Positions 3,001-57,524 of a stretch of DNA of 64,000 nucleotides are shown here, piece by piece. The stretch comes from Curtobacterium flaccumfaciens pv. betae (GTDB lineage: Bacteria; Actinomycetota; Actinomycetes; Actinomycetales; Microbacteriaceae), in assembly GCF_026241855.1 (NCBI RefSeq), contig NZ_JAPJDC010000001.1, positions 3,348,001-3,412,000 of the forward strand, given 5' to 3'. The notes under the pieces were generated by a model. It saw nothing but the letters and a program-made list of their open reading frames with translations, was not told the DNA's origin and searched no databases. Made by a program: the position numbers and the translations under genes. The number at the start of each line of letters is the position of its first letter. The first letter of the stretch is position 1.

Positions 3001-3021
3001 ACCTTCGCGAACGCCGCTGTG

Positions 3022-9209: not shown

Positions 9210-9236
9210 CGGCGCGCGCGGCCGCTCGCGCGCTCG

Positions 9237-9300
9237 ACGTTTCGCGCTCAGCGACAGCTCGCGCGGCGATCAGCCCGTGGGCTGTCGCTCAGCGCGAAAG
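9237..9300. repeat. Palindromic intergenic repeat, family B copy 1
   Basis: TTTCGCGCTCAGCGACAG (from 9240) and, after 20 bp, the near-exact complement CTGTCGCTCAGCGCGAAA. A second copy lies at 25920-25983. This copy is downstream of galK, between it and a convergent gene, where it may also act as a terminator. Confidence 0.75.
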
Positions 9301-9343
9301 AACGGCAGCACCCCGACAGCCGCGACCGCGCGCGTCCGCCTAC

Positions 9344-9793: not shown

Positions 9794-9820
9794 GCCGCGA
9801 CCGTAGCACCGGCGGAGTGC

Positions 9821-9880
9821 ACTTCGTGAGCAGCAATGGTCGGGTGCGATGACGCAACCCGACCATTGCTGCACACAATC
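9821..9880. repeat. Palindromic intergenic repeat, family A copy 1
   Basis: A perfect 15-bp stem, CAGCAATGGTCGGGT (9831-9845) with its complement at 9857-9871, and an 11-base loop. The left flank ACTTCGTGAG matches the other copies at 16530 and 42085; the right flank has diverged. It lies between folD and the hypothetical membrane-protein gene. Confidence 0.78.
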
Positions 9881-15086: not shown

Positions 15087-16538
15087 ACGTCCACCACCAC
15101 CACGATCCCCGACACGACCACGGCCAGCGGCTTCGGTCCGAAGCTCCTCATCCCGGTGCTCGTCGGGCCCCTGCTCAACCCGATCAACACCACGATGGTG
15201 TCGGTCGCCCTCACCCCGATCTCCCGCGACCTGGGCATCGGTGCGGCGCAGGCGATCTGGCTCGTCGCGGCCCTGTACCTGGCGAGTGCGATCGCGCAGC
15301 CCACGATGGGCAAGCTCGCCGACCGGTTCGGCCCGAAGAAGGTGTTCCTGACCGGGCTCGTCATCGTCGGGATCGCCGGGGTGGTGCCCGAGGTCCTGAC
15401 CGGGTTCGGCGGCGCCGTGTTCGCCCGGGTGCTCATCGGCATCGGGACGTCGTCGGCGTACCCGGCGGCGCTCACCACGCTCCGGCAGCACTCCGCCCGG
15501 ATCGGGAAGCCGACGCCGCCGCTCGTGCTCGGGGCGCTGTCGATCACGTCGCTCGTGTCCGCCGCCGCCGGCCCACCGCTCGGCGGGGCGCTCATCGCCG
15601 CGTTCGGCTGGCACGCGATCTTCCTGGTGAACGTGCCGCTCGCGGTGTTCGGCATCGTCGTGGCGACGCTCTGGCTGCCGTCCGACCGGCTGCGTCCGCG
15701 CGACGACGCCGACCTGCCGGTGCTGCAGGCGCTCGACCCGCTCGGCATGGTGCTGATGACCGGGACCGTCTCGGCGCTGCTCGTCTTCCTGCTCGACCTG
15801 TCCGCCGGGCTGTGGTGGCTGCTCGCGGTGGCCGTCGTGTTGCTCGGCGCCCTGGTGGCGTGGGAGCTCCGGGCCGTGCGACCGTTCGTCGACGTGCGGC
15901 TGCTCGCCCGGAACGGCGCGTTGTCCCGCACGTACGGCCGCCTGTTCCTGACGTACCTGCTCGCCTACACGATGACGTACGGGTTCTCGCAGTGGGTGCA
16001 GGACGTCGCGGGTTACCCGAGCGACGTCGCCGGGTACATCCAGCTGCCGGCCGCGATCGTCGCCGGGGTGGCCTCGTTCGTCGTCGCACGGAAGACCGCG
16101 ATCCGCGGGCCACTCGTCGTCGCCGCGCTGGTGCCGATCCTCGGCGGTGTACTCCTGCTCTTCCTGCACACCGGGTCGCCCGTCGTCCTGCTCGCCCTGG
16201 CCCCGGCGCTGTTCGGGGTGCCGCAGGCCCTGGCGTCGGTGTCGAACCAGGCGGCGCTGTACCGGCTCGTCCCCGCGGAGTACATCGGCACCGCGGCCGG
16301 GCTGTCCCGCACCGCGGTGTACATCGGGGCGATCGCGGCGTCCTCGCTGATCGGCGGCGTGTTCGGCCAGGCCCCGACGACGCCGGACCTGCACGTGCTG
16401 GCATGGGTGATCCTCGGCGTCGCGGTACTCCTGACCGTGCTGACCCTGGCCGACCGTCGCCTGCGTGACGCCGACGCACCGGCCCTTGCGCCCGCGCCCG
16501 CGCCCGACGCCACCGCCGCTGCGCCTGACGCTTCGTGA
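15087..16538 (+). CDS. MFS transporter, EmrB/QacA-like drug exporter
   Basis: A multidrug exporter of about 14 membrane helices, with the MFS loop motif GKLADRFGPKKVFLTG between helices 2 and 3 and an Ala/Pro-rich tail. No ATG, GTG or TTG exists at the expected start. Protein similarity seems to begin at STTTTIPDTTT, whose only candidate initiator is ACG at 15087, eight bases after GGAAGAAG. The first canonical codon, GTG at 15156, would cut into helix 1. The stop codon lies inside a family A palindrome. Probably controlled by the upstream MarR protein. Confidence 0.85.
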   Translation, partial: TSTTTTIPDTTTASGFGPKLLIPVLVGPLLNPINTTMVSVALTPISRDLGIGAAQAIWLVAALYLASAIAQPTMGKLADRFGPKKVFLTGLVIVGIAGVVPEVLTGFGGAVFARVLIGIGTSSAYPAALTTLRQHSARIGKPTPPLVLGALSITSLVSAAAGPPLGGALIAAFGWHAIFLVNVPLAVFGIVVATLWLPSDRLRPRDDADLPVLQALDPLGMVLMTGTVSALLVFLLDLSAGLWWLLAVAVVLLGALVAWELRAVRPFVDVRLLARNGALSRTYGRLFLTYLLAYTMTYGFSQWVQDVAGYPSDVAGYIQLPAAIVAGVASFVVARKTAIRGPLVVAALVPILGGVLLLFLHTGSPVVLLALAPALFGVPQALASVSNQAALYRLVPAEYIGTAAGLSRTAVYIGAIAASSLIGGVFGQAPTTPDLHVLAWVILGVAVLLTVLTLADRRLRDADAPALAPAPAPDATAAAPDAS

Positions 16539-16590
16539 GCAGGAACGGTCGGGTCACCGCTGCCCACTCGACCGTTCCTGCTCACGAAGC
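16530..16590. repeat. Palindromic repeat, family A copy 2, spanning an MFS stop codon
   Basis: Perfect 21-bp arms (16531-16551 and 16569-16589) starting CTTCGTGAGCAGGAACGG, with a 17-base loop. This is the most intact family A copy. The TGA of the upstream MFS gene is the TGA within CGTGAGC, so the repeat supplies the last codon and stop. The purU -10 box lies 18 bp after its end. Confidence 0.85.
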
Positions 16591-25866: not shown

Positions 25867-25912
25867 GGCCTGGAGGCGCGGTGCCAGGGCGCCACGGACC
25901 TCCCGTCCGCGC
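25867..25912. repeat. Hairpin repeat, family C copy
   Basis: GGCCTGGAGGCGCGGTGCC is followed by GGCACC-like spacing and ACCTCCCGTCCG. Imperfect stem. It lies between the Nudix stop and family B copy 2, in a convergent gap, so two repeat families are adjacent here. Confidence 0.6.
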
Positions 25913-25919
25913 CCCCCCG

Positions 25920-25983
25920 ACGTTTCGGGCACAGCGACAGTCCACGCATCTGGTCGCGCGTGGACTGTCGCTCAGCGCGAAAC
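25920..25983. repeat. Palindromic repeat, family B copy 2
   Basis: GTTTCGGGCACAGCGACAG plus TCCACGC, a 12-base loop, then the complement GCGTGGACTGTCGCTCAGCG. It matches family B copy 1 (9237-9300) in the outer 18 bases of each arm, while the inner arms and loop differ. Located at the convergent ends of the Nudix and ABC ATPase genes. Confidence 0.75.
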
Positions 25984-25993
25984 CTCGTCGCGA

Positions 25994-27064
25994 CTACGCG
26001 AGCGGCGCGACCGCCACGGGTGCGCCGAGCAGGCGCACGGCGACGGGGTCGCCGGTGGCCCGGCGATCGCCGACCTCGTGCTGGACGGTCACGACGGTGT
26101 CGTCGTCCAGGCGGACGGTGGTGCGGCGGATCGACCCGAGGAAGCTCGAGGTGACGACGGTGCCGGTGATGCCCTCGGGGGCGAAGGCGATGTCCTCCGG
26201 CCGGACGTAGGCGAGCACCGGGCCGTCCGGCGCCGAGGAGTCGAGCGCCGGCACCCGGAACCCGTACACGAAGACGTCACCCCCGCGCAGGTCGCCCTGC
26301 AGCCGGTTCGACTGACCGACGAAGTCCGCCGTGAAGGCCGACGACGGGGTGCGGTAGAGCTCCTCGGGCGTGCCGATCTGCTCGATGTCGCCCGCCTGCA
26401 TCACCGCGATCCGGTCGGAGACGGCGAGCGCTTCCTCTTGGTCGTGCGTCACGAACACCGTGGTGATGCCGAGGTCGCTCTGGATGCGTCGGATCTCGTC
26501 ACGCAGCGAGACCCGGACCTTCGCGTCCAGGGCCGACAGCGGCTCGTCGAGCAGGAGCACCCGGGGACGGGTGACCAGGGCACGGGCCAGGGCGACGCGC
26601 TGCTGCTGCCCACCGGAGAGCTGGTGCGGGTAGCGCTCGGCGAACTCGCCGAGGTGGACCATGTCGAGGGCCTCGACCACGCGGCTCCTGCGCTCGGCGG
26701 AGGGAACCCGGCGCATCTCGAGGCCGAAGGCGACGTTCTGCCGGACCGTCATGTGCGGGAACAGCGAGTACTGCTGGAACACCATGCCGATGTCGCGTTT
26801 GTTGACCGGGGTGTCGGCGACGTCCTGTCCGTCGATGCGGATGGAGCCGGCGTCGATCGCCTCGAGGCCCGCGAGCGCCCGGAGCGCCGTCGTCTTGCCG
26901 CAGCCGGACGGGCCGAGCAGCGACACGAACTCCCCGGGCTCGACACGGAGGGACAGTCCCGCGAGCGCCCGGTGTGCGCCGTAGTGCTTCTCGACGGCGT
27001 GGAGTTCGACGACGGCACCGGTGGTGGCGAGGGACGCCGGGGCTGCCGGAGCGGTGACGGTCAT
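25994..27064 (-). CDS. ABC importer ATP-binding protein (PotA/FbpC-like)
   Basis: The ATPase of a four-gene importer. Its 356 residues contain Walker A GPSGCGKTT, signature LSGGQQQR, Walker B VLLLDEP and the switch His in VTHDQEEA. A C-terminal TOBE-type domain follows (about 270-356, with YVRPEDIAF), as in polyamine, iron and phosphonate importers. The ATG overlaps the stop of the second permease gene. The substrate cannot be named from sequence alone. Confidence 0.92.
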   Translation of the reverse strand: MTVTAPAAPASLATTGAVVELHAVEKHYGAHRALAGLSLRVEPGEFVSLLGPSGCGKTTALRALAGLEAIDAGSIRIDGQDVADTPVNKRDIGMVFQQYSLFPHMTVRQNVAFGLEMRRVPSAERRSRVVEALDMVHLGEFAERYPHQLSGGQQQRVALARALVTRPRVLLLDEPLSALDAKVRVSLRDEIRRIQSDLGITTVFVTHDQEEALAVSDRIAVMQAGDIEQIGTPEELYRTPSSAFTADFVGQSNRLQGDLRGGDVFVYGFRVPALDSSAPDGPVLAYVRPEDIAFAPEGITGTVVTSSFLGSIRRTTVRLDDDTVVTVQHEVGDRRATGDPVAVRLLGAPVAVAPLA

Positions 27065-30254: not shown

Positions 30255-30692
30255 ATGCGGTTCACGACGACGGTCCTGCAAGCACGGAAGACGGCGACCG
30301 GACTCCCCGTCCCGGAGTCCGTCATCGAGGCGCTCGGATCCGGCAAGCGCCCCGCGGTGGTCGTCACGATCAACCGGGGACACACCTACCGCTCCACCGT
30401 CGGGGTCATGGACGAGCAGTACCTGGTGCCGCTGTCGGCCGCACACCGTGAGGCCGCCGGGATCGCCGCAGGGGACACCGTCGAGGTCGCACTCGAGGTC
30501 GACACCCTGCCCCGGACCGTCGACCTACCGGAGGACCTGGCCGCCGCGCTGCAGGAGGCCGGCGTGCGTGCGGCGTTCGACACCCTGTCGAACTCGCGGC
30601 AGCGGGCACTCGCCGACCCGGTCACGCAGGCGAAGGCCCCGGAGACCCGGGCACGGCGGATCGAGAAGGCCGTGGAGTCTCTGGGAGGGTAG
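30255..30692 (+). CDS. DUF1905/OmdA-like (YdeI family) protein
   Basis: A 145-residue protein in two parts: an N-terminal beta-barrel DUF1905 domain (about 1-75, with MRFTTTVLQ and GDTVEVALEVD) and a C-terminal helical YdeI/OmdA segment (about 88-145, with FDTLSNSRQRALADPV). The family is sometimes called bacteriocin-protection; its function is unknown. The ribosome site is within GGCCTGGAGGCACGG, which matches the family C repeat core. It is divergent from the binding-protein gene and is followed by a family E repeat. Confidence 0.85.
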   Translation: MRFTTTVLQARKTATGLPVPESVIEALGSGKRPAVVVTINRGHTYRSTVGVMDEQYLVPLSAAHREAAGIAAGDTVEVALEVDTLPRTVDLPEDLAAALQEAGVRAAFDTLSNSRQRALADPVTQAKAPETRARRIEKAVESLGG

Positions 30693-30724: not shown

Positions 30725-30837
30725 GGCCTGGTCGTTTCGGGCATACCTGGTCGTTCCGGGCGTACCTGGTCGGAAGTTCTCGCCAGGTATGCCCGGAAGC
30801 ACCAGGTATCGCGGGCGTTCTGGGAAAGAACGGGCTC
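30725..30837. repeat. Composite hairpin repeat, family E copy 1
   Basis: Two GGGC(A/G)TACCTGGTCG units, GGAAGTTCT, the complement CCAGGTATGCCCG, then CGTTCTGGGAAAGAACG. The same order occurs at 40379-40489 and, inverted, at 33579-33690. This copy fills the convergent gap between the DUF1905 gene and the NAD(P)HX dehydratase gene and touches the latter's stop codon. Confidence 0.78.
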
Positions 30838-31699
30838 AGGCCCCGAGCTCGACCAGGACCCGCGGGATCTCGGTCACGAGTTCGCTCGCCAGGTACCCGA
30901 GCGGCCCGACCTGCACCGCGAGTCGGTCGCCTGCGGCAGCGTGCACGTAGGACGCCCACGCCACGGCCTGTGCCGGATCGGCGCCGCGGGCGAGCAGGCC
31001 GGTGACCGCACCGGACAGCACGTCCCCACTGCCGCTCGTGCCGAGACCGCCGGAGCCGGTGCCCTTGAGCCACGCCCGACCCTGCGGTGTGGCGATGGCG
31101 TCGCCGAGGGCCACGACGGCACCGAAGCGGTTCGCGATCGCAACGGCGTCGGCCACGTCGTCGTCGCTGCACTCCCGCCCGAGCAGGCGTTCGGCCTCGC
31201 CGGAGTTCGGCGTCATCACGAGCCGTCCGCGCAGCGGTTCCAGGCGGTCCCGCACGTCGGCGGCCACCCCGAGGGCGAAGGCGTCGAGCACGACGGTGGT
31301 GTGCGGACCGACGACGTCGGCGAGTCCGGCCACGAGGTCACGGGAACCGTCCGGCTCGTCGAGCCCCGGCCCGACCAACACGGCGTCGGCACTCGACGCG
31401 CTGTCCGCGATGCCCTCGATCGCGCCGACGGCGATGTGTCCGTCCTGGTCCTCGTCGAGTGGTTCGACCCCGGACTCGGGCACCGCGACCGCGACCTCGT
31501 TCGCCACGCTCCGGCCGACCGCCAGGGTGAGACGACCGGCGCCGACCCGGAGTGCGGCGAGCGCGGAGAGCAGCGCTGCTCCCGGCGTCCGTGCGGCTCC
31601 CCCGATGACGAGCACCTGCCCGCGGCCGTACTTGCCGGCACCGGGTTCGGGCAAGGGCCAGTCCCGCAGGAAGTTCGGGGTGACGGGTTCAGTGGACAT
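30836..31699 (-). CDS. nnrD: ADP/ATP-dependent NAD(P)H-hydrate dehydratase
   Basis: Repairs hydrated NADH and NADPH (NADHX, NADPHX). The 287-residue carbohydrate-kinase-like protein has YGRGQVLVIGGA near the N-terminus, MTPNSGEAERLLG, and the C-terminal GTSGSGDVLSGAVTGLLARG loop with the catalytic Asp. It lacks the N-terminal epimerase domain found in fused NnrE-NnrD proteins. The start lies 11 bases inside the end of the phosphatase gene upstream. Confidence 0.9.
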   Translation of the reverse strand: MSTEPVTPNFLRDWPLPEPGAGKYGRGQVLVIGGAARTPGAALLSALAALRVGAGRLTLAVGRSVANEVAVAVPESGVEPLDEDQDGHIAVGAIEGIADSASSADAVLVGPGLDEPDGSRDLVAGLADVVGPHTTVVLDAFALGVAADVRDRLEPLRGRLVMTPNSGEAERLLGRECSDDDVADAVAIANRFGAVVALGDAIATPQGRAWLKGTGSGGLGTSGSGDVLSGAVTGLLARGADPAQAVAWASYVHAAAGDRLAVQVGPLGYLASELVTEIPRVLVELGA

Positions 31700-32429
31700 G
31701 TTCGTCGTCCTTCCGGCCGGTGTGCTGGGTGACCTCGTCGTCGTCCAGGTGCCCGACGGAGGAGAACTCCTCGAGCACCCACGGCGATCCGGCGTCGTCG
31801 CGACGGAGCCGGGTGAGGGAGGCGTTCGCGACGGCGTGGGTCCGGGCGAACTCCATGAGCGCCGGCTCGTCGAGGTCGAGGCACACCGCGACGGCGAGCA
31901 TCACCACGGCGTCGTGCGCGGCGATCACCAGGCGCTCGGCGCCGTCGACCCGCTCGACATCGCCGAGGAGGGACCGGAGCCGGAGCATCACGTCGGCCCA
32001 CGACTCCCCGCCCGCCGGCCGGTGGTAGTACTTGCCGAGCCACTGCCGACGGCGTTCCTCGTCCGGGTACCGGTTGCGGACGCCCTGCAGGGTCAGCAGG
32101 TCGAGGACGCCGAGTTCGCGGTCGCGCAGCCGCTCGTCCACCCGCTTCTCGGGTTCGGCGAGGCCGGCTGCCTCGAGCGCGATCGCGATGGTCTGTTGTG
32201 CGCGGAGGTACGGCGACACCCACAGCGCGACGGGAACGTCGTCGATCCCGCGGTCGGCGAGCTCCTGCCCGAGGGCCCGGGACTGATCAGTGCCGAGCGG
32301 GCTGAGTGGGACGTCGGCGTCCCGGAACTCGACGTCGACGACGTCGTCGCCCGCTGCTTCGGCCCGAGCCGCCGCGACGTTCGCGACCGATTCGCCGTGA
32401 CGGACGAGCCAGATCTCCTGCACTGCCAT
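31689..32429 (-). CDS. Histidine phosphatase family protein
   Basis: A phosphoglycerate-mutase-like phosphatase of 246 residues. The catalytic motif LVRHGESVANV (His11) is at the start, with acid Glu in ELGVLDLL and the second His in IAAHDAVVM. The residue pattern fits broad-specificity phosphatases. TAGCGT (32436-32441, minus strand) lies six bases before the ATG, so it is probably leaderless. It overlaps the downstream dehydratase gene by 11 bp, implying cotranscription. A 23-bp tandem array lies directly upstream of its promoter. Confidence 0.88.
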   Translation of the reverse strand: MAVQEIWLVRHGESVANVAAARAEAAGDDVVDVEFRDADVPLSPLGTDQSRALGQELADRGIDDVPVALWVSPYLRAQQTIAIALEAAGLAEPEKRVDERLRDRELGVLDLLTLQGVRNRYPDEERRRQWLGKYYHRPAGGESWADVMLRLRSLLGDVERVDGAERLVIAAHDAVVMLAVAVCLDLDEPALMEFARTHAVANASLTRLRRDDAGSPWVLEEFSSVGHLDDDEVTQHTGRKDDEHVH

Positions 32430-32467
32430 GCCGCCACGCTAGCCAGAGCGTGCTGTGCCGGTTCACC

Positions 32468-32559
32468 GGTGCCGAACGGTCACCCCGTGCGGTGCCGAAC
32501 GGTCACCCCGTGCGGCGTCGAACGGTCACCCCGCGCGGCGTCGAACGCTCCGGACCGGG
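32468..32559. repeat. 23-bp tandem direct repeats
   Basis: Three units of GGTGCCGAACGGTCACCCCG plus three bases (32468, 32491, 32514) and a degenerate fourth (32537). The first two are identical; the third differs at four positions. The array covers the last codons and stop of the endonuclease-like gene and lies about 27 bp upstream of the -10 box of the histidine phosphatase gene. It may be a set of regulator sites or simple slippage. Confidence 0.8.
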
Positions 32560-33485
32560 CGGACCGCGCACGGGAGCCCCGCCGCCCGGAGTCGCAGTGC
32601 CAGCGCTTCGAGGTCGAAGAGGTCTCGCCACTCGAGCCGGATGATCGTCCGGACACCCGGCACGGTGAGCAACCGACCGTGCCGCCGCTTCTCGTCGAGG
32701 AACACCTCGGTCGGGCTCCGGCCGCCGAGGTAGCGCTCCTGGGAGTACTTGGCCCGTCCGTCGATCTCGACGATGACCCCGTGGTCCGGGAACCAGAAGT
32801 CGACCGCGGACCGACGGCCGTCCACGACGAACTCCTGCTGCAGAACCGGCGCGGGCAGTCCGAGCTCCCGGAACACGACCCGAGCGAGCGACTCGGCCGG
32901 CGACCCGGACCGACCGTCGGCCAGGTCGAGCACCTGCTGCGCCAGGGCTCGGGCGCGGGCCTTCGGAGGAACCGCTCGTCGGAGGTCGGCGTCGTCGAAC
33001 CCACGTCGCAGCGCGGCGTCCGCGATGATGACGCCGGCCCGCAGGTCGCCGGACATCGCGATGTCGACGACGGTCCGGGGCACGGAGGTGACGGCGATCG
33101 CACCGACCGTGATCCGTTCGGCCCGGCCGACGGGTCTCGTGTGCAGGACCAGCTCGGCGCTCCTGCCCCGGTACATCGACTCCGGCACCGTCGCGTGCAC
33201 CGGGACGTCCCACCCGGCGAGCGCCGGGAGGCCGTGCAGGGCCGCCGCGGACAGGTGCGAGGCCGTCGCCCGCGTGCCGAGCCGTCCGAGCCGCGCGAAG
33301 ACCCGGGTGACGTACCGCTGACGAGGCCCGGCCGCGTCCCACGCGGCGCCGTCGACGAAGGCGTTCGGCCCGACCCGGACCAGGCGGCCGACACCCTGGG
33401 TCCGGGTCCGGCGGCGCAGGGTGGTGGCATCGAGGCCGGCCTCGTGCATGGCGGAGGCTCGGAGGATGGGCAGCGACTCGTTCAT
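32526..33485 (-). CDS. AbiEi-like protein with DUF559/VSR-type endonuclease domain
   Basis: A 319-residue protein. The N-terminal half (about 5-150) resembles the AbiEi antitoxin-type fold common in actinobacteria: winged helix, then ALHGLPALAGW and SVPRTVVDIAMSG. The C-terminal half is a restriction-endonuclease-like DUF559 domain with VDFWFPDHGVIVEIDGRAKY and RRHGRLLTVPGVRTIIRLEW. The basic C-terminus is encoded by the 23-bp repeat array. No partner AbiEii nucleotidyltransferase is next to it. The role is uncertain; a defence or DNA-repair connection is only suggestive. Confidence 0.8.
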   Translation of the reverse strand: MNESLPILRASAMHEAGLDATTLRRRTRTQGVGRLVRVGPNAFVDGAAWDAAGPRQRYVTRVFARLGRLGTRATASHLSAAALHGLPALAGWDVPVHATVPESMYRGRSAELVLHTRPVGRAERITVGAIAVTSVPRTVVDIAMSGDLRAGVIIADAALRRGFDDADLRRAVPPKARARALAQQVLDLADGRSGSPAESLARVVFRELGLPAPVLQQEFVVDGRRSAVDFWFPDHGVIVEIDGRAKYSQERYLGGRSPTEVFLDEKRRHGRLLTVPGVRTIIRLEWRDLFDLEALALRLRAAGLPCAVRPVRSVRRRAG

Positions 33486-33578
33486 GCACGTGACGATGCC
33501 CGCTCAGCCACCCGCTCCTGGGGCCGATGTCGGGAACTGTGGACGGGCCTCCAGGCCTGGGCGGTTGTGGAGGGGAGA

Positions 33579-33690
33579 CGTTCCTTCCCAGAACGGCCGC
33601 GATGCCAAGCGGAACCGGGCGTACCTGGCCGGAAGTTCCGACCAGGTACGCCCGATTCGACCAGCTACGCCCGATTCGACCAGGCCACCC
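33579..33690. repeat. Composite hairpin repeat, family E copy 2 (inverted)
   Basis: ACGTTCCTTCCCAGAACG, a 17-base spacer, AAGCGGAACCGGGCGTACC, then GGAAGTTCCGACCAGG and repeated TACGCCCGATTCGACCAG. This is the inverse orientation of the copies at 30725 and 40379. It occupies the 337-bp gap between the endonuclease-like gene and the GH38 gene. The gap also holds a half family C element (GGGCCTCCAGGCC, about 33544) and short CGACCAGGCCACCCGACC duplications near 33677-33715; nothing else is evident. Confidence 0.78.
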
Positions 33691-33822
33691 GACCCGCCCG
33701 ACCAGGCCACCCGACCCGCACGCGCACGCCGCACCCCGCACGCAACACGACGCCGAACGGAACGCACCCGTGTCCCGTCCGGCGCCGCGGTCTCTCCCCG
33801 ACCGAACGCCGGGCCCGCTGCC

Positions 33823-36800
33823 TCAGGCCCGACGCACGCGCAGCGTCACGATCTCGAACGGCCGCAGGGTCAGTACGACCGGCTCCCCGGCCGACCACGA
33901 GCGCTCCAGCGGCCGCTCGAGCAGGTCGACCTGTGACACCGACTCGACGTCGAACCCGAAGGAGACCCCGACGTCCGACGCCCGGCCGCCGAGTCCCTCG
34001 TACAGTCGCACGACGACGTCTCCGGAGCGGTCCTCGGCGAGCTTGACGGCCTCGACGAACACCTGCGGCGACGACACCATGACGAGCGGCGCGACCTCGG
34101 CCGACCCGGGGACGCTCCGCACCGGCAGGTTCAGCCGGTACCCGGAGTCCGCGGCGTCGAGCACCGAGGCCCCGATCCGCAGCACCGTCCGGAACACGTG
34201 GTGCCCCTGGTCGGCGTTCGGGTCCGGGAACGTCGGCCCGCGCAGCAGCGACTCCCGCACGAGCGTGGTGATCCCGCCGTCCGGCCGGGTCTCGCGCGTG
34301 ATGTCGTGGCCGTAGGTCGAGTCGTTCGCCACGGCGACGCCGAACCCGGGCTCCGCGACGTGCACCCAGCGGTGTGCCGAGGTCTCGAAGCGGGCGTGGT
34401 CCCACGAGGTGTTCTGGTGCGTCGGCCGGTCGATGTGTCCGAACTGGATCTCGCTCGAGGCCGACGACGCGAGCACGTCGATGGGGAACGCGAGCTTCAG
34501 CAGCTTCTGGTGCTCGTGCCAGTCGACCTCGGTCTCGACGGTCAGCTCCGGTTCGCCCTGCACGGCGGAGTAGCGCGTGGTGAGCGTCGACGATCCGAAG
34601 GACCGTTCCACCACGAGCGAGGAGCCGTCGACCAAGACGGACGACGCCGACAGCACCGTGCCGTTGCGCTGGTACGCGCGGTCGATGTCCCACGCCTCCC
34701 ACTGGTTCGGGGTGTCACGGAACACCGTGTACTCCGCCGCCGCGGCGCCGGGCGCGATCGCGTCGCGTCCGGTGGCGTGGTCGACGAACGAGACGACGTG
34801 GCCGGCGGCGTCGATGGTCGCCGTGACGACGCCGGTGTCGAAGACGAAGTGGTCGCCGCTCCGGACGGGAGGCACGGGTCGCGGCGCGTGGACGACCGAA
34901 CCTGCCAGGGCGGTCACGTCCCCTGCCGCGACGGGCGAGGCGTTGAAGCGCACGACCGACGCGGCGTCGTCGGCGCCGGCGAGCGCCGTCGTCGCGCTGC
35001 CCGCGAGCGCCGTCGTCGCGCTGCCGATCAGCCCCTCGAGCACCTCGGCGACCCGGGCGTACTGCTCCTCGGCGTTCTCGTACACCCACGCGATCGAGGA
35101 CCCGGGCAGGATGTCGTGGAACTGCTGCAGCAGGACGGTGTGCCAGGCGTCCTCGAGTTCGGCGTACGGGTACTCGCTGCCGAGCCGGACCGCCGCCGTC
35201 GCTGCCCAGAGCTCGGCTTCGCGCAGCAGGTGCTCGGAGCGGCGGTTGCCCTGCTTCGTGCGGATCTGCGACGTGTAGGTGCCGCGGTGGAACTCGAGGT
35301 ACATCTCCCCTGACCAGACCCCCGGCGTCGGCAGCTCGGCTTCGAGCTGCTCGAACACCTGCGCCGGCGTGCCGAGCGTGACGTGGGGCGACCCGTCGAG
35401 GTCGTGCTGGCGGTGTGCGGCGCCGACCATCTCGCGGGTGGGACCGCCGCCGCCGTCCCCGAAGCCGTACAGGAGCATCGAGGTGTTCGCGGTGCCGCGT
35501 TCCTTGTTGTTCCGTTCGCCGCGGCGCAGGTCGGCGGGCGAGACGTCGGAGTTGTAGGTGTCGGCCGGGGGCAGGTGCGTCAGGACGCGCGAGCCGTCGA
35601 TGCCCTCCCAGTGGAACGAGGTGTGCGGGATGACGTTCGTCTCGTTCCACGACGGCTTCTGGGTGACGAACCACTTCGATCCGGCGGCGCGGACGATCTG
35701 CGGCAGGGCGCCCGAGTAGCCGAACGAGTCGGGGAGCCAGGCCTCGGGGGTGTCGATGCCGAACTCCTCGAGGAAGAAGCGCTTGCCGGCGACGAACTGG
35801 CGGGCCAGGGCTTCACCGCCGGGCAGGTTGGTGTCCGACTCGACCCACATGCCGCCGACCGGGATCCACCGGCCCTCGGCGACGCGCTGCTTGATGCGGG
35901 TCCAGATGGACGGGTACTCGTCACGGATCCACGCGTACTGCTGTGCGGACGAGCAGGCGAAGGTGAAGTCGGGGTCGCGGTCCATCAGGTCGAGCACGTT
36001 CGAGAACGTCCGCGCGCACTTGCGCTTCGTCTCGCGCACGGGCCACAGCCAGGCGGAGTCGATGTGGGCGTGCCCGACGGCGATCGCGCGGTGGGCGGCG
36101 GGGCTGGCGGGGACGGCGAGCACGGGCGCCAGGACCTGACGGGCGTCCGCGGCGGTGCCGGCGACGTCGTCCGGGTCCAGGGCGTCTGCGGCGCGTTCGA
36201 GTGCCCGCAGGATGTCGGCGCCGCGGGTGCCGTCGGTGGGGAGCTCGGCCATCAGCCCGCGCAGCACCCAGAGGTCCTGCTGCAGTTCCCACACGGTGTC
36301 GTCGCGCTCGACGACCTCGAGGGCCTTCAGGCGGTAGATCGGGTCGTCGCCGGCGGTGGAGCGCGAGCCGAGCGGCGTCGCACCCTGGAACGAGTCGCCG
36401 CCGATGTCCGGGTTCGCCCCGGCCTCGATCCAGAGCTCGAAGGACTCCCCCGGGCCGACCTCGAGCGGCACGGTGTCGTTCCGCGGCTCGATCGCCTTGA
36501 TCGTGGAGCCGTCGGCGCGGAACGCGAGTCCCTCGGCCTGGAAGCCGGGCTGCCGCTTGGTGAACCCGAGGTCGACGAGGAGCTCGGCGGTGGTCCCCGG
36601 CGCGGTGCCGAAGTCCGCCGGCACGGTCCCGGTCACCCGGAACCACGTCGTGCCCCACGGGCGTCCGCCCCAGTGCGACCCCACCGTGAACGGTGTGTAC
36701 GTCTCGCCCACGGCGGCGTCGAACGGCACCGGTTCGCCCGGCACCTCCCACGCCTCGATCGTCACCGGCGCCGAGCGACGGAGGACGGCGGGGTCGACGC

Positions 36801-36855
36801 GGTCGCGCACGAGGCGGGCGATCCGGGCCTCGACGAGCGGTTCGTCCTGGTGCAT
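33823..36855 (-). CDS. GH38 family alpha-mannosidase
   Basis: A 1010-residue retaining alpha-mannosidase acting on mannosides taken up by the adjacent importer. The metal and substrate residues are in VGHAHIDSAWLWPV (His262, His264, Asp266), and the catalytic nucleophile Asp376 is in AWLPDSFGYSG. A ~250-residue N-terminal beta-rich domain, a central helical domain and C-terminal beta-domains follow the normal family order. No signal peptide, so cytosolic. The ATG has AAAGGAAG upstream. It is the last gene of the binder-permease-permease-GH38 operon. Confidence 0.94.
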   Translation of the reverse strand: MHQDEPLVEARIARLVRDRVDPAVLRRSAPVTIEAWEVPGEPVPFDAAVGETYTPFTVGSHWGGRPWGTTWFRVTGTVPADFGTAPGTTAELLVDLGFTKRQPGFQAEGLAFRADGSTIKAIEPRNDTVPLEVGPGESFELWIEAGANPDIGGDSFQGATPLGSRSTAGDDPIYRLKALEVVERDDTVWELQQDLWVLRGLMAELPTDGTRGADILRALERAADALDPDDVAGTAADARQVLAPVLAVPASPAAHRAIAVGHAHIDSAWLWPVRETKRKCARTFSNVLDLMDRDPDFTFACSSAQQYAWIRDEYPSIWTRIKQRVAEGRWIPVGGMWVESDTNLPGGEALARQFVAGKRFFLEEFGIDTPEAWLPDSFGYSGALPQIVRAAGSKWFVTQKPSWNETNVIPHTSFHWEGIDGSRVLTHLPPADTYNSDVSPADLRRGERNNKERGTANTSMLLYGFGDGGGGPTREMVGAAHRQHDLDGSPHVTLGTPAQVFEQLEAELPTPGVWSGEMYLEFHRGTYTSQIRTKQGNRRSEHLLREAELWAATAAVRLGSEYPYAELEDAWHTVLLQQFHDILPGSSIAWVYENAEEQYARVAEVLEGLIGSATTALAGSATTALAGADDAASVVRFNASPVAAGDVTALAGSVVHAPRPVPPVRSGDHFVFDTGVVTATIDAAGHVVSFVDHATGRDAIAPGAAAAEYTVFRDTPNQWEAWDIDRAYQRNGTVLSASSVLVDGSSLVVERSFGSSTLTTRYSAVQGEPELTVETEVDWHEHQKLLKLAFPIDVLASSASSEIQFGHIDRPTHQNTSWDHARFETSAHRWVHVAEPGFGVAVANDSTYGHDITRETRPDGGITTLVRESLLRGPTFPDPNADQGHHVFRTVLRIGASVLDAADSGYRLNLPVRSVPGSAEVAPLVMVSSPQVFVEAVKLAEDRSGDVVVRLYEGLGGRASDVGVSFGFDVESVSQVDLLERPLERSWSAGEPVVLTLRPFEIVTLRVRRA

Positions 36856-36877
36856 GTGCTTCCTTTCTGGTTCGCGG

Positions 36878-36943
36878 AACACCGGTGTTCGCGGATCGAA
36901 CCGCGGTTCGCGGGTGTTCGACGCGCGAACACCGGTGTCTTGC
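36878..36943. repeat. Hairpin repeat, family D copy 1
   Basis: A ~66-bp element bounded on each side by AACACCGGTGTT-like palindromes (second end AACACCGGTGTC), with GAACCGCGGTTCGCG inside. An inverted copy lies at 57455-57524. It sits in the 105-bp gap between the second permease and GH38 genes of one operon, so it may set a processing or attenuation point. Confidence 0.72.
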
Positions 36944-36960
36944 GGGGGTGGGGGCCGGCG

Positions 36961-37860
36961 TCAGCCCTTGATGCCGCCGGCGAGGGCGTTGCCGCCGCCG
37001 AGGCCTCGGGACACGATCACGTAGAGGGCGATGACCGGCACGGAGTAGACGATCGAGAACGCGGCGAGCTGGCCGTACGCCACCGCCCCGTTCTGCCCGA
37101 AGAAGTTGAAGATGCTCACCGCGGCGGGCACCTTCTCGGGCGAGAGCAGCAGGACGAAGGGGACGAAGAAGTTCCCCCACGCCTGGATGAACACGAAGAT
37201 GAAGACGACCGCGATGCCCGGACGCATGAGCGGGATCACGATGCGGGTCAGGGTGGTGAGCATCGAGGCGCCGTCGGTCCACGCCGCCTCTTCCAGCGAG
37301 ATCGGCACCGAGTCCATGAAGTTCTTCGCCATCCAGATCGCCATCGGCAGCGACGTGGCGGCGAGGAAGAAGATGCAGCCCCACACGTTGTCGATCAGGT
37401 TGAGCGACACGAACAGCGCGTAGACGGGCACCATCATCGCGGTGATCGGCAGACCGGTGCCGAACAGGATGCTGTACAGGAACGGCTTGTTGACCCGCAT
37501 CTTGTACCGGGACAGCGGGTACGCGGCGAGCAGGGCGAACACCACGGTGACGACCGCCGTGCCGCCGGAGAGCAGCAGGCTGTTCGCGAGCGGGATGAAC
37601 GACAGCTCGGGGGTGAGCACCTTCGCGAAGTTGTCGAGGGTGAACTGCGAGGGCAGCTTCACCGACAGCGACGCCTGGGTGTCGAACGAGGCGAGCACGA
37701 GCCAGAGCAGCGGCACCGCGAAGCACACCGCGATGACGAGCAGCACGGTGTTCGACACCCACCGCATGGTGCGGCCGCGCGGTGACGTCATGTGCATCGA
37801 CCCCGGTGCGGTCACCGAGCGGGTCGTGGTCTGGTCGAGGGACGGGGCGGTCATGGCCAT
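36961..37860 (-). CDS. Carbohydrate ABC importer permease, MalG-like
   Basis: A 299-residue inner-membrane permease of the carbohydrate uptake CUT1 class with six helices from about residue 35. The EAA loop is ISLEEAAWTDGASMLTTLTRIVIPLMRPG. The start shares one base with the previous stop (TGATG). No ATPase is encoded in the operon, as is common for actinobacterial CUT1 systems that use a shared MsiK ATPase elsewhere. Confidence 0.92.
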   Translation of the reverse strand: MAMTAPSLDQTTTRSVTAPGSMHMTSPRGRTMRWVSNTVLLVIAVCFAVPLLWLVLASFDTQASLSVKLPSQFTLDNFAKVLTPELSFIPLANSLLLSGGTAVVTVVFALLAAYPLSRYKMRVNKPFLYSILFGTGLPITAMMVPVYALFVSLNLIDNVWGCIFFLAATSLPMAIWMAKNFMDSVPISLEEAAWTDGASMLTTLTRIVIPLMRPGIAVVFIFVFIQAWGNFFVPFVLLLSPEKVPAAVSIFNFFGQNGAVAYGQLAAFSIVYSVPVIALYVIVSRGLGGGNALAGGIKG

Positions 37861-38810
37861 CAGTCCACCTCCGGCTTGAGGGCCCGGATGTAGATGATCG
37901 AGAAGACCGCCCCCACCACGAGCAGGATGGTCGCGATCGCGGTCCCGAAGCCGAGCTGCGAGAACTTGAACGCCTCCTGGTACGCCAGGATCGGCAGGGT
38001 CGACGAGTTCGTGCCCGGACCGCCGCCGGTCATCACGAAGATCAGCGTGAAGACAGACAGGGTCTGCAGCGTCGTGAGCATGAGGTTCGTCGAGATGCTC
38101 CGGCGGATCACCGGGAGCGTGATGTAGACGAGCCGCTGCCAGCCGGTGGCTCCGTCGACCTCGGCGGACTCGGTGATCTCCTCGGGGACCTCCTGCACGG
38201 CGGCCGAGTAGACGAGCATCGAGAACGCGGTGCCGCGCCAGATGTTCGCCAGGATCACGGCGAGCATCGGGTACGTGTAGAGCCAGTTCGCGCCGGTGAT
38301 CCCGATCGACGCGAGGAACGTGTTGAGCGTCCCCTCGTCGTTGAAGAACGCGTACGCCGCGAAGGACGCCACGATCTCCGGCAGGACCCACGCGGCCACC
38401 ACGAAGGTGCCGACGATCGCCCGGACGGCCTTGTTCGCCGAGCGCATCAGCAGGGCCAGTCCGAGGCCGAGCACGTTCTGTCCCACCACGGCCGAGGCCA
38501 GCAGGAAGACGACGGTCAGGATGACGGACTTCGGGAAGTCCGGGTCCTGGAACAGCTCGACGTAGTTCTGGAACCCGACGAACTGCTGGTCGGCGGCGCT
38601 GGCACCGGTCAGCGCCGAGTTGGTGAACGACCCGTAGAACGACGAGATGACGGGGCCGAGCAGGAAGATGACGAGGAGGACCAGGGCGGGGACGAGCGGA
38701 ACCGCTCGTCCGACGTTCCGCAGTGGTCGCCGCTTGCGCGGCACGGGTGGATCGGTGCGCTTCGGCGCACCGGGCGCCGACAGCGTCGGCGCGAGGGGGG
38801 TGCTGGACAC
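37860..38810 (-). CDS. Carbohydrate ABC importer permease, MalF-like
   Basis: A 316-residue CUT1 permease with an N-terminal basic/proline tail (1-35) and six membrane helices. The EAA loop reads ITESAEVDGATGWQRLVYITLPVIRRS. GTG start with GGAAGG about ten bases upstream. It pairs with the MalG-like permease and the lipoprotein binder. Confidence 0.92.
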   Translation of the reverse strand: MSSTPLAPTLSAPGAPKRTDPPVPRKRRPLRNVGRAVPLVPALVLLVIFLLGPVISSFYGSFTNSALTGASAADQQFVGFQNYVELFQDPDFPKSVILTVVFLLASAVVGQNVLGLGLALLMRSANKAVRAIVGTFVVAAWVLPEIVASFAAYAFFNDEGTLNTFLASIGITGANWLYTYPMLAVILANIWRGTAFSMLVYSAAVQEVPEEITESAEVDGATGWQRLVYITLPVIRRSISTNLMLTTLQTLSVFTLIFVMTGGGPGTNSSTLPILAYQEAFKFSQLGFGTAIATILLVVGAVFSIIYIRALKPEVD

Positions 38811-38857
38811 GATGGGTGCCTTCCGGGTGCGGAGGGGTTCCGAAGGTGGGAAAGAGC

Positions 38858-38900
38858 GGACGGGAGGCGCGGTGCGGGACCGCCCCGCGCCTCCAGTCCG
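38858..38900. repeat. Hairpin repeat, family C copy within an operon
   Basis: CGGACGGGAGGCGCGGTGCG, a short loop, then CCGCGCCTCCAGTCCG: a near-perfect ~17-bp stem. It lies between the binding-protein gene and the first permease gene of the sugar importer, a position where hairpins commonly protect the upstream mRNA and raise binder levels. Confidence 0.75.
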
Positions 38901-38917
38901 TCAGTGGGTGACGTCCG

Positions 38918-40276
38918 TCAACCAGCGGAGACGGTGTTCTCCTTGCCGACCACCTGCGTGACGGCCTTGTCGTAGGCGGCAGCCGCGTCCTTCGGCGACT
39001 GCTGGCCCGTCATGACCGCTTCCATCGCGACCTGGATCGCGTTGGAGACCTGCGAGTAGTCACTCGTCGCCGGGCGGAAGTTGGTGTTCTCCACCAGCCC
39101 CGAGAAGAACTTGAACGTCGGGTTCGCCGCCGTGTAGGCCGGGTCGTCCGCGACGTCCTTGCGGACGGCGATCTGACTGTTCTCGGTGTCGTACTTCAGC
39201 GAACCGTCCTTGTCGAGGAAGCTCGTGATGAAGTCGAACGCCGCCTGCGGGTTCTTCGACTTCGCGCCGACCGCCAGGGTCCAGCCGCCGGACATCGAGT
39301 TGTAGCCGGGAGCCTGCCCGTTCTGGGTCGGCATGGGTGCCTGGCCCATCACGTCGTTCCACTCGGGCCACGGCGCTGTGCCGGACTTCAGCCACGTGCC
39401 GGACTGCCACGAACCGTCCAGGTCGATCGCGAGCTTGCCCTTCGGCAGCCACGTCTGGGCGATGGTCGTGCCGACGTTCGTGTCGAGCGCCTGCTGCGGT
39501 GTCGGGCCGAGGCCGCCCTGGTAGACGTCCTTCACGAACTTGAGCGAGTCCTCGAACTGCTTCGAGCCGGTGACCCACTTCTTGTCCTTGTACAGGGTGT
39601 TGCCGGAGCCGTCCGCGCCGTACAGGAGCATCTCGAAGCCCTGCATGGTCGAGGCCTCGCCCTGCGCCTTGCCCGAGTAGATGTTGAACGGGATGACGTC
39701 GGGCTGCTTGTCCTTGATGGTCTTCGCCGCCGCGAGCACGTCGTCCCACGTCTTCGGCTTCCACGGGACCTCGAGCCCGGCCTTCTTGAAGATGTCCTTG
39801 TTGTACCAGAGGGCTCGGGTGTCGGTGCCCATCGGGACGCCGTAGATCTTGCCGTCGTCACCCTGCCCGGCCTGCTTGGCGTTGTCGAAGAACTGGTCCC
39901 ACTCGTCCCACTTGTCCGTGTACTTGTCGAGTGGCAGCAGGTAGCCCGCCTCGGCATCGGCCTTGACGAGGAACGTGTCCTCGTACATGACGTCCGGGGC
40001 GGTGGCCGGCGCCTTGTTCATGAGCGCGAGCTTCGTGTAGTAGTCGTTGCCCTGCGCCTGGATGGGCACGAGGGTGACCTTCTTGCCGGGGTTGTCCTTC
40101 TCGTACTGCTTCTTGACGACCTTCATCTGGGCGTCGAGCTGCTGGAAGGCGCCGAACTTCTGGTACGCGATCTTGATCGTGTCGCTCGAGGCGGACCCCG
40201 AGCTCGAGCAGCCAGCCAGACCGACTGCGGCCACGGCCACAGCTGCGAGTCCGGCGATGATGCGGGTGCGTTTCAT
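38918..40276 (-). CDS. Carbohydrate ABC importer substrate-binding lipoprotein
   Basis: A 452-residue binding protein of the type 1 family (CUT1). Signal peptide with lipobox GLAGC, Cys23. Typical binder segments are GVPMGTDTRALWYNKDIFKKAG and GKLAIDLDGSWQSGTW. The ATG is preceded by AAAGGAG. It is the first gene of the operon leading to GH38, so a mannoside ligand is inferred from context only. Confidence 0.92.
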   Translation of the reverse strand: MKRTRIIAGLAAVAVAAVGLAGCSSSGSASSDTIKIAYQKFGAFQQLDAQMKVVKKQYEKDNPGKKVTLVPIQAQGNDYYTKLALMNKAPATAPDVMYEDTFLVKADAEAGYLLPLDKYTDKWDEWDQFFDNAKQAGQGDDGKIYGVPMGTDTRALWYNKDIFKKAGLEVPWKPKTWDDVLAAAKTIKDKQPDVIPFNIYSGKAQGEASTMQGFEMLLYGADGSGNTLYKDKKWVTGSKQFEDSLKFVKDVYQGGLGPTPQQALDTNVGTTIAQTWLPKGKLAIDLDGSWQSGTWLKSGTAPWPEWNDVMGQAPMPTQNGQAPGYNSMSGGWTLAVGAKSKNPQAAFDFITSFLDKDGSLKYDTENSQIAVRKDVADDPAYTAANPTFKFFSGLVENTNFRPATSDYSQVSNAIQVAMEAVMTGQQSPKDAAAAYDKAVTQVVGKENTVSAG

Positions 40277-40342
40277 CGGTGCTCCTTTGCACGGGTGATG
40301 TCCGCGGGCACCATCGCCCGCGCGCAGGATTAGTCCACCGTA

Positions 40343-40360
40343 TTGACTTAACCGTGTCAA
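40343..40360. promoter_or_regulatory. Inverted repeat and -35-like box before the sugar importer
   Basis: TTGAC-TTAACCGT-GTCAA is a 5-8-5 inverted repeat in an unusually AT-rich stretch. On the minus strand it begins TTGACA, a perfect -35 hexamer, so a protein bound here would block transcription of the binder gene. LacI or ROK repressors are candidates; the ROK gene at 44.8 kb is the nearest. Confidence 0.5.
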
Positions 40361-40378
40361 GGAGTTTCTGGGGGAGGC

Positions 40379-40489
40379 CGTCGGCGGAATCGGGCGTACC
40401 GAGTGAAATCGGGCGTACCGGGTCGGAAGTTTCGACCAGGTACGCCCGATTCCGCTTCCCAACGCATGCGTTCTGGGAAGGAACGTCCG
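40379..40489. repeat. Composite hairpin repeat, family E copy 3
   Basis: Two (A)ATCGGGCGTACC units, GGTCGGAAGTTTCGACC, TACGCCCGATTCCGC, then GCGTTCTGGGAAGGAACG. It has the same order as copy 1 (30725) and the inverse of copy 2 (33579). The element fills the space between the importer promoter and the PhzF stop codon, ending one base before that stop. Confidence 0.8.
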
Positions 40490-41332
40490 TCAGGAGATCG
40501 GCGTCGCGCTCCCCGTCACCGTGATCCCGCCGGCCTCGGGGACGTCCACGAGCAGCAGACTCGGACGCCCGACGTGCCGCCCCTGCCGGATCGTGATGGG
40601 GTCGCCCGGCTGCGCTGCACCGATCTGCCGCAGGTACGCCCCGGTCGACGCCGCAGCCGATCCCGTCGCCGGGTCCTCGGTGATGCGCCCGGCGGGGAAC
40701 AGGTTGCGCGCCTCGTACTCCCGGTCGCCGGTGCGGTGCAGCACCGTGACGGTCCCCGCCCATCCGGCCTCGCGTTTGAGCTCGGCGAGGGGCCCCGGCG
40801 CGAACCGGAACTGGTGGAACAGCTCGCGGTCGTGCAGCACGAGGACCGGGTGCCAGTTGCCGGCGAAGGACTCCAGCACCGGGAACCCCGGAGCGATGTC
40901 CGCCGCCTCGAGTCCGAGCAGGTCGAACAGCCGCGCCAGCAGGGCCGGGTCGAGGTCCCGTGTGGCGGGCTCGACGCTCGTCATCGCGACCTGCACCGCG
41001 CCGTCCGCACCCACGGTCGCATCGAGGGCGACCTCGCCGGCCAGGGTCGTGAACACCCGGCGGCCCGTCCCTTCTCGCTCGGCCAACGCGACGGCCAGTG
41101 CGACGGTGGCGTGCCCGCAGAACGGGACCTCGGCGCTCGGCGAGAAGTAGCGGACCCGCGGCCCGGTCGCCGTCGAACCGACGACGAAGGCGGTCTCGGG
41201 GTACCCGACCTGCCGGGCGATCGCGAGCATCTGGTCGTCGGACAGCCCGGCCGCGTCGAGCACGAGCCCGGCGGGGTTGCCACCGCCCGGTTCGGCGGCG
41301 AAGGCGGTGTACCGGAGGATCTCCTGCTGCAT
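40490..41332 (-). CDS. PhzF family phenazine biosynthesis-like epimerase/isomerase
   Basis: A 280-residue protein with the diaminopimelate-epimerase-like fold. Family marks are RYTAFAAEPGGGNPAGLV at the N-terminus, with the usual catalytic Glu in YPETAFV, then FCGHATVALA and ITEDPATGSAAAS. PhzF relatives isomerise varied substrates; no phenazine genes are nearby, so the reaction is unknown. The stop abuts family E copy 3. Confidence 0.9.
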   Translation of the reverse strand: MQQEILRYTAFAAEPGGGNPAGLVLDAAGLSDDQMLAIARQVGYPETAFVVGSTATGPRVRYFSPSAEVPFCGHATVALAVALAEREGTGRRVFTTLAGEVALDATVGADGAVQVAMTSVEPATRDLDPALLARLFDLLGLEAADIAPGFPVLESFAGNWHPVLVLHDRELFHQFRFAPGPLAELKREAGWAGTVTVLHRTGDREYEARNLFPAGRITEDPATGSAAASTGAYLRQIGAAQPGDPITIRQGRHVGRPSLLLVDVPEAGGITVTGSATPIS

Positions 41333-42013: not shown

Positions 42014-42056
42014 CGCCTGGAGGCGCGGGGCGGCCCCGCACCGCGCCTCCCGTCCG
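42014..42056. repeat. Hairpin repeat, family C copy
   Basis: GCCTGGAGGCGCGGGGCGG followed by CCCCGCACCGCGCCTCCCG. The stem is strong. It lies just after the lipoprotein stop and 28 bp before family A copy 3, so two families again sit side by side between convergent genes. Confidence 0.75.
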
Positions 42057-42084
42057 TCGCGCGGTCGCGCCCACCACCCATGGT

Positions 42085-42139
42085 GCGCAGAAACGGTCGG
42101 GTCCGCTGTTCGAACCCGACCATTCCTGCTCACGAAGTG
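42085..42139. repeat. Palindromic repeat, family A copy 3
   Basis: GCAGAAACGGTCGGGT (42087-42102) pairs with ACCCGACCATTCCTGC (42114-42129) with two mismatches. The right flank TCACGAAGTGC matches the other copies; the left flank has decayed. It lies before the stop of the lamin-tail protein gene. Confidence 0.75.
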
Positions 42140-44573: not shown

Positions 44574-44704
44574 GCAGGGTCCTTCTCGGGGGAGAGAGCG
44601 GGCGGAGACCTGCACGACTGTTCAGCATCCACGCGACCGGCCGGTGGCCGCCGGGTGAACGGGCGGTGTCCCGGGTCGCGACCGGTGCCCTGGACGCGCG
44701 CGTG

Positions 44705-52498: not shown

Positions 52499-52554
52499 GC
52501 GTTGCGTCCTCATGCGTCTGCCGGGTCCCCGGGTCGCGCTGCGCGGTGCGTGCG

Positions 52555-52640
<86 letters not shown>

Positions 52641-57454: not shown

Positions 57455-57524
57455 GCAAAACACCGGTGTTCGCAGGACGAACACGCGCAGGACGCGGTTC
57501 AACCGACGAACACCGGTGTTGTGC
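57455..57524. repeat. Hairpin repeat, family D copy 2 (inverted)
   Basis: AACACCGGTGTTCGCAGGACG at the left and GACGAACACCGGTGTTGTGCG at the right, with GCGGTTCAACCG between. The complement aligns with copy 1 (36878-36943) along the full ~65 bp. It lies between the sucD stop and the DUF6350 start. Confidence 0.72.

What the first reader, a model, noticed from the sequence alone, without database searches (positions are those of the whole stretch)
30725..40489. Family E: a ~110-bp composite repeat in three copies within 10 kb
Copies at 30725-30837, 33579-33690 (inverted) and 40379-40489 share the same parts in order: GGGCGTACC direct repeats, a strong stem around GGAAGTTTC, and a terminal CGTTCTGGGAA-GAACG hairpin. 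Each lies in a gene gap and two touch stop codons. The modular, oriented and conserved structure looks like a non-autonomous mobile element or a structured RNA rather than a simple terminator.
Basis: seen in the sequence. Interest (0 to 1): 0.7.

Follow-up and report, generated by a model that had tools for sequence, protein, structure and literature searches.

The report
Palindrome repeats with partner nuclease genes
The three look-alike DNA stretches belong to one of several families of palindromic repeats scattered at gene ends in the plant-associated bacterium Curtobacterium; several of these families appear to belong to their own DNA-cutting enzyme gene, which suggests a kind of genomic repeat system not found described in the papers that could be searched.

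Summary
In detail: three copies of a ~100-bp composite element in gene gaps, two beside stop codons. The genome (Curtobacterium) has 45 copies at gene 3' ends. No RAYT-type transposase. Instead, gene 32526-33485 (-), beside copy 2, encodes a protein modelled as an AbiEi-antitoxin fold plus a Vsr/EDxHD homing-endonuclease fold. All 25 orthologues found sit at one locus with an element about 93 bp upstream; the 10 genus genomes without element hits all lack the gene. Nine genes of this kind in this genome have palindromes in adjacent gaps; four palindrome families are shown to be dispersed, all present in the window. In 25 of 28 testable class-level loci both flanks match, against 2 of 142 control genes. 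Ten slots of one family differ between two strains; in 8 the other strain has a different palindrome. Best reading: each nuclease binds and cuts its palindrome, and break repair copies palindromes into gene-end slots. The association is well supported; cutting and copying are inferred. Works like RAYT/REPIN, but is not one.

The parts
30733..30832 (+). family E copy 1 (core; a further partial direct repeat from about 30725), in the convergent gap between genes 30255-30692 (+) and 30836-31699 (-)
33579..33678 (-). family E copy 2, 93 bp upstream of the start of the nuclease gene; an element is at this place in all 25 orthologous loci found
40386..40485 (+). family E copy 3, next to the stop end of the PhzF-like gene 40490-41332 (-)
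32526..33485 (-). 319-aa protein p3: AbiEi-antitoxin-like residues 5-190 + Vsr/EDxHD homing-endonuclease-like residues 195-305; proposed cognate nuclease of family E
36875..36942 (.). 68-bp palindrome of another family (F133, CAAAACACCGGTG arms) whose cognate nuclease gene is at genome 2434418-2435284; slot bare in strain LMG 3645 (L072)
57456..57523 (.). second F133 palindrome in the window
9227..9324 (.). repeat of family D13, matching by reading the palindromes on both sides of the nuclease gene at genome 2564849-2565748
25910..26007 (.). second D13 repeat
9819..9880 (.). repeat of family D10, matching by reading the palindrome upstream of the nuclease gene at genome 534686-535507
16528..16589 (.). 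second D10 repeat
42076..42137 (.). third D10 repeat

Best explanation
Family E is one of several palindrome families of this genome, each tied to a single-copy gene for an AbiEi-Vsr-type nuclease. Shown by sequence: the adjacency, the gene-specific palindrome on one or both sides of the gene, the dispersal of palindromes at gene 3' ends (shown for families E, F133, D13 and D10), the absence of element hits in 10 of 15 genomes that lack the gene and in none that have it, and, for F133, replacement of one palindrome by another in the same slot between strains. Inferred: the N-terminal AbiEi-like part binds the inverted repeats (probably as a dimer), the C-terminal nuclease nicks or cuts there or at competing hairpins, and repair of the break with a palindrome elsewhere as template copies the palindrome into a new slot. 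Gene ends are favoured because hairpins already sit there and insertions elsewhere are selected against.
Against: No binding, cutting or copying has been seen. Family E is atypical: composite, with direct repeats, and in the window only upstream of its gene. Of the 5 first-found paralogues of this genome only 3 pass the both-flank score (85, 83, 65 against 26 and 30). Genome-wide dispersal was counted only for E and F133; a strict pattern for F136 found only the two copies beside its own gene in the held part of the genome. Over 43 loci, flank likeness follows the nuclease part (rho 0.28) at least as much as the N-terminal part (rho 0.18), so point 8 is a single case. Five genomes have elements without the gene. 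The class loci are the best-scoring matches, not a random draw, 9 of 29 come from one family (f38) and several of these share their palindrome; the threshold 44 was set. Within-genome likeness of family E copies (mean 0.736) exceeds same-slot likeness between groups (0.654), but clearly only in L080. My prediction that the G059 nuclease at C36:438001 would carry the GGAACC palindromes failed, and that family (13 copies in G059) has no nuclease gene within 1.5 kb of any copy. Presence and absence were not tested on a species tree.
Confidence: 0.6

Rival explanations
1. The palindromes are bidirectional transcription terminators or 3'-end stabilising RNA hairpins; the nuclease genes merely use them as terminators and operators, and families spread by ordinary recombination because terminators are needed at those slots.
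For: 0 of 45 family E and 1 of 26 F133 copies lie in divergent gaps; 25 of 45 and 15 of 26 are convergent. Differing F133 slots keep a hairpin of some family in 8 of 10 cases. AbiEi antitoxins bind inverted repeats in their own promoters (PMC7319586, abstract).
Against: Does not explain why nuclease genes have matching sequence on both sides (25 of 28 class loci) and other genes rarely do (2 of 142), or why no genome with the gene lacks element hits. No T-run follows the three window copies (by reading; the terminator scan was not run). Covariation is not beyond shuffles.
Confidence: 0.2
2. The nuclease gene with its flanking palindromes is an ordinary autonomous transposon, and the dispersed palindromes are its MITEs, inserted by cut-and-paste.
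For: Gene flanked by matching ends and many short copies without the gene; bare slots exist.
Against: p3 sits at one syntenic locus in all 25 loci found, and the other hits of this genome to p3 are at most 41% identical in the rows shown, so there is no second copy of the same nuclease among them. No target-site duplication could be recognised at 10 differing slots, and the usual difference is replacement, not insertion.
Confidence: 0.12
3. The nuclease is a defence or DNA-maintenance protein that only uses the palindrome as an autoregulatory operator; the dispersed copies are decoys or a regulon and gene-end location is incidental.
For: AbiEi-type antitoxins bind operators (PMC7319586, abstract); the element is at a fixed distance upstream of p3.
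Against: Operators would sit in promoters; the dispersed copies avoid divergent gaps and several paralogues also have a downstream copy.
Confidence: 0.08

Closest known systems
REP/REPIN repeats with RAYT (TnpA-REP) tyrosine transposases
   Same: Dispersed extragenic palindromes, several families per genome, near their own single-copy enzyme gene; co-evolution of enzyme and repeat proposed (PMC3116915 abstract and Discussion; PMC8266576 abstract; PMC3733652 passages).
   Different: The enzyme is unrelated: AbiEi-like + Vsr-like nuclease instead of a Y1 HUH transposase, which was not found in this genome. F133 palindromes are 68 bp, and slots swap between families.
EDxHD homing endonuclease I-Bth0305I / Vsr
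   Different: No sign of an intron or intein was looked for or noted; the p3 gene stays at its locus, and what is dispersed is the palindrome.
AbiE type IV toxin-antitoxin (AbiEi; Rv2827c)
   Different: Joined to a nuclease part; the neighbours of p3 are not an AbiEii-type toxin gene.
DUF559 (PF04480) / REase_MTES_1575 (PF18741) proteins
   Same: Some relatives of p3 carry these Pfam accessions (the name of PF18741 is recalled).
   Different: No link to palindromic repeats appeared in the listings. p3 itself matches no Pfam or NCBIfam model.

Membership tests
REP/RAYT (REPtron) | Y1 (HUH) tyrosine transposase gene as partner | tested here: not met
   PF01797: 0 matches in the own genome; control rings in 5 of 14 named genomes
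REP/RAYT (REPtron) | extragenic dispersed palindromes | tested here: met
   45 family E copies, none inside a called gene; 26 F133 palindromes, none inside
REP/RAYT (REPtron) | repeat of the family next to the partner gene | tested here: met
   25 of 25 p3 loci; both sides for F133 and G088
REP/RAYT (REPtron) | GTAG-type tetranucleotide at one end | not tested
   no scan made
EDxHD homing endonuclease | Vsr-like catalytic fold with conserved acidic residues | tested here: met
   model matches 3r3p and 1cw0; invariant E198, D229, E240, D242 in 69 sequences; that these form the active site is my reading
EDxHD homing endonuclease | gene moves into cognate empty sites | tested here: not met
   p3 at one locus in 25 of 25 loci found
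EDxHD homing endonuclease | site-specific DNA cleavage | not testable with these tools
   needs an assay
AbiE type IV toxin-antitoxin | AbiEi antitoxin fold | tested here: met
AbiE type IV toxin-antitoxin | neighbouring AbiEii nucleotidyltransferase toxin gene | tested here: not met
   for p3 only: neighbours are a histidine phosphatase and a GH38 mannosidase in the window; gh38 with his or du beside it in the relatives; paralogues not checked
MITE / transposon | target-site duplication | tested here: inconclusive
   none recognised at 10 slots, but the sequence next to the junctions differs
intrinsic terminator | T-run after the hairpin | tested here: not met
   none after the three window copies, by reading; other copies not checked
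structured RNA | compensatory base changes beyond chance | tested here: inconclusive
   covariation score reached by 76 of 500 shuffles; further pair types by 12 of 500

The most novel reading that the evidence does not exclude
Actinomycetes carry a widespread, non-RAYT class of palindrome-nuclease pairs: single-copy AbiEi-Vsr nucleases that each maintain a population of cognate 60-100-bp palindromes, which compete for and overwrite one another in gene-end hairpin slots by nuclease-triggered gene conversion ('palindrome homing').
Probability: 0.5. Interest if true: 0.93.

Novelty: categorically new. Interest (0 to 1): 0.85.

Why it matters
RAYT/REPIN is the well-described case known to me in which dispersed palindromes go with a cognate single-copy enzyme. 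A second, non-homologous case would show that this arrangement arose more than once. It would also offer a function for a family of 'hypothetical', AbiEi and DUF559-labelled proteins whose profile matches 130 of 148 sampled genomes of the class, give a test bed for how nucleases and repeats co-evolve, and explain a turnover of gene-end hairpins that could change termination and mRNA 3' ends between strains of one species.

Tried and rejected
Rejected: RAYT partner. An Rfam RNA at gathering score. A mobile unit formed by p3 with two inverted family E copies, seen in G008, G028 and G030: the two genes between p3 and copy 1 are missing there, so copy 1 came to lie beside p3. The prediction that the G059 nuclease at C36:438001 carries the GGAACC palindromes failed. 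Concerted evolution of family E as a general rule: clear only in L080. A rank correlation specific to the N-terminal part: not seen. The single-sequence structure model was poor (pLDDT 47.0); only the model with alignment A3 was used. Foldseek gave no match at E 0.001 or better.

Rows dropped: 25 of 70 CM rows as opposite-strand overlaps. L167 was too short, so 33 of 34 loci. L215 was untestable, so 28 of 29. The gene-caller version of the flank test reached only 16 of 28 family loci (12 at >=44) and 23 of 29 class loci (21 at >=44). In one search 17 of 33 loci beat every mismatched flank pair; mismatched pairs reached up to 343, which I ascribe, without a check, to orthologous neighbour genes. 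Five of 25 p3 loci (L122-L126, four of them broken) were left out of the N/C comparison. Own F133 sites without both arms were not counted. The two weakest rows were not counted as nuclease genes. The 142 control genes come from 20 Microbacteriaceae genomes, not from the class genomes. A second control of 255 Curtobacterium genes gave 8 at >=44; three of its four at >=60 are p3 orthologues, the fourth (its function is my reading: acetamidase-like) lies between two family E copies. Genes were called with a script of my own trained on the window.

Not done: genome-wide counts for families D13, D10, F135, F136 and the GCACCGTGCGAG family; a species tree; a repeat count in any class-level genome outside the family; the promoter/terminator scan. 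Papers: PMC3116915 abstract and Discussion; PMC8266576 and PMC7319586 abstracts and outlines; PMC3733652 and PMC3943268 passages; all others search listings only. Most subscription papers are not in the library.
Full report
What is there. The three copies are real and share parts in order. Thirteen exact-motif copies in the genome align without gaps over 100 columns. They form a long hairpin (19-nt direct repeat against its inverted copy, with an outer, weaker pair in the same register) followed by a short terminal hairpin; four sequences folded gave z-scores from -4.05 to -7.81. Compensatory change is not beyond shuffles, so hairpin formation is clear but selection as an RNA is not. Upstream direct repeats vary in number.

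Distribution. A covariance model (R1) finds 45 distinct copies in the 3.78-Mb genome: 25 in convergent gaps, 10 and 10 in co-directional gaps, none in divergent gaps, none inside called genes. Gaps over 60 bp in the window are 17 co-directional, 12 divergent and 7 convergent. Copies also occur in clusters, e.g. three at 2994848-2995247. Among 59 genomes the model hits 26 of 36 in the genus and 0 of 23 outside it. Named relatives show the genus to be Curtobacterium, nearest C. flaccumfaciens.

The partner gene. No Y1 transposase was found. Copy 2 lies 93 bp upstream of a 319-aa gene at 32526-33485 (-). Orthologues (about 60% identity or more) are in 25 of 40 genus genomes, beside the same GH38 gene wherever the contig allows it to be seen (L111 and L123 are cut by contig ends), each with an element about 93 bp upstream (L120 and L121 are weak, E 0.12 and 0.019). 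Gene and element hits in the 36 genomes common: 21 both, 0 gene only, 5 elements only (G001, G005, G010, G013, G027), 10 neither (Fisher p 1.2e-5; not corrected for shared ancestry). L075 keeps elements and only residues 260-319 of the gene, as expected for recent loss. R1 was built from own-genome copies, so diverged elements may be missed; at the copy-1 slot of L078, L083, L084 and L088 reading the alignment shows none. In other clades the element has another unit sequence but the same layout (L080, L081, L082).

The pattern is general. The genome has further genes of this family. Nine, p3 included, have long palindromes in adjacent gaps; two further rows, one partial and one weak, were not counted, and I made no control count for one-sided adjacency. 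Family F133 (CAAAACACCGGTG arms) flanks the gene at 2434418 on both sides, and its arms occur 23 + 28 times, reversed control 0; the 26 sites with both arms are each 68 bp. Window families D13 and D10 match, by reading, the palindromes beside the genes at 2564849 and 534686. For the other five genes dispersal was not counted genome-wide; F136 was seen only beside its own gene in the held part of the genome (strict pattern). In G088, another genus, 22 arms were found, control 0, and the four perfect ones flank the gene. A score for likeness between the two flanks of a gene was >=44 in 25 of 28 class-level loci and in 20 of 33 loci from Microbacteriaceae and other Curtobacterium, against 2 of 142 control genes from arbitrary stretches of 20 family genomes. 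The class loci are the best match of 29 of the 130 genomes with a match; one is of the same family and one of the same order as the window's genome, 9 come from one other family (f38), and several of these share their palindrome, so they are not 28 independent cases. In this genome itself 3 of 5 paralogues pass. Of the 16 shared stretches that I printed, most are long hairpins; L168 is an AT-rich exception.

Slot turnover. Strain G059 (its contig C31 has the length of the C. flaccumfaciens LMG 3645 contig that holds L072) shares 18 of 26 own F133 sites; 8 are own-only and 2 are G059-only. At these 10 slots, with flanks 93-99% identical, the other strain carries a long palindrome of another kind in 8 (GGAACC family 4, D10 1, CACAACC type 2, GGAGGC terminator-like 1) and none in 2. 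The GGAACC family has 25 arms in G059 against 4 in the own genome. No target-site duplication was recognised. At the copy-1 slot of family E other species carry D13-like palindromes (L078, L086, by reading).

Specificity. At the locus of the paralogue 1751478 the two strains differ in the N-terminal part (41% identity) and in the upstream repeat, while the nuclease part is 92% identical and the surrounding DNA 93-96%. This fits an N-terminal recognition module that changes with its repeat, but it is one case, and over 43 loci no N-specific trend was seen. In p3 the N-terminal part also diverges faster (mean identity 0.635 against 0.775, 20 of 25 orthologues).

Mechanism. Most likely the AbiEi-like part binds the inverted repeats (AbiEi antitoxins do so in their promoters, PMC7319586 abstract), probably as a dimer (I-Bth0305I is said to dimerise on nearly 60 bp, PMC3943268 passages), and the nuclease cuts; repair from another copy spreads or swaps the palindrome. 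Binding, cutting and copying are inferred. Against known kinds: it works like REPIN/RAYT but fails the transposase test; it shares the catalytic fold of EDxHD homing endonucleases, but its gene does not move; it shares the AbiEi fold but lacks the toxin gene.

Novelty. Searches of the paper library gave no listing that links DUF559, AbiEi or Vsr-type proteins to dispersed palindromic repeats; only listings, abstracts, one Discussion and passages were seen, and most subscription journals are missing. I rate it categorically new because the partner enzyme is not homologous to any repeat-associated enzyme I know of and because slots are swapped between families; a reader who counts any palindrome-enzyme pair as a REPtron would call it a new variant.

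Noticed in passing
window 32467-32550: Tandem 23-bp repeats (CGGTGCCGAACGGTCACCCCGTG) at the 3' end of the nuclease gene; they reach into its last codons, and 49 bp of them are absent in L074 and L075.
   Followed up: no
window 2838-3017: Three tandem 60-bp units holding the 3' half of a tRNA gene; a full tRNA lies at 2807-2879.
   Followed up: no
window 12207-12291 (-): ZMP/ZTP riboswitch (Rfam RF01750).
   Followed up: no
window 38853-38900, 42017-42056, 44695-44748, 62454-62497: GGAGGCGCGG...CCGCGCCTCC-type hairpins near gene ends, possibly an ordinary terminator family; in L073 a 67-bp palindrome is inserted in the one at 38861.
   Followed up: partly
window 52540-52641: Long TTGC/TGC low-complexity repeat just upstream of the gene start at 52498.
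   Followed up: no
G059 (13 palindromes, e.g. C31:133754-133815); own genome 2670259 and 355470: GGAACCAGGTTCCGGACAC palindrome family expanded in one strain, with no nuclease gene within 1.5 kb of any copy.
   Followed up: partly
L107, L108, L122 (G030, G028, G008): The two genes between p3 and copy 1 are missing, so that p3 lies between two family E copies.
   Followed up: partly
L168 (G081): Nuclease gene flanked by AT-rich, weakly structured 62-bp matching repeats rather than GC-rich palindromes.
   Followed up: no
L082, L085/L111 (apparently one contig), L123: Draft contigs start inside a family E element, as expected if the repeat breaks assemblies.
   Followed up: no
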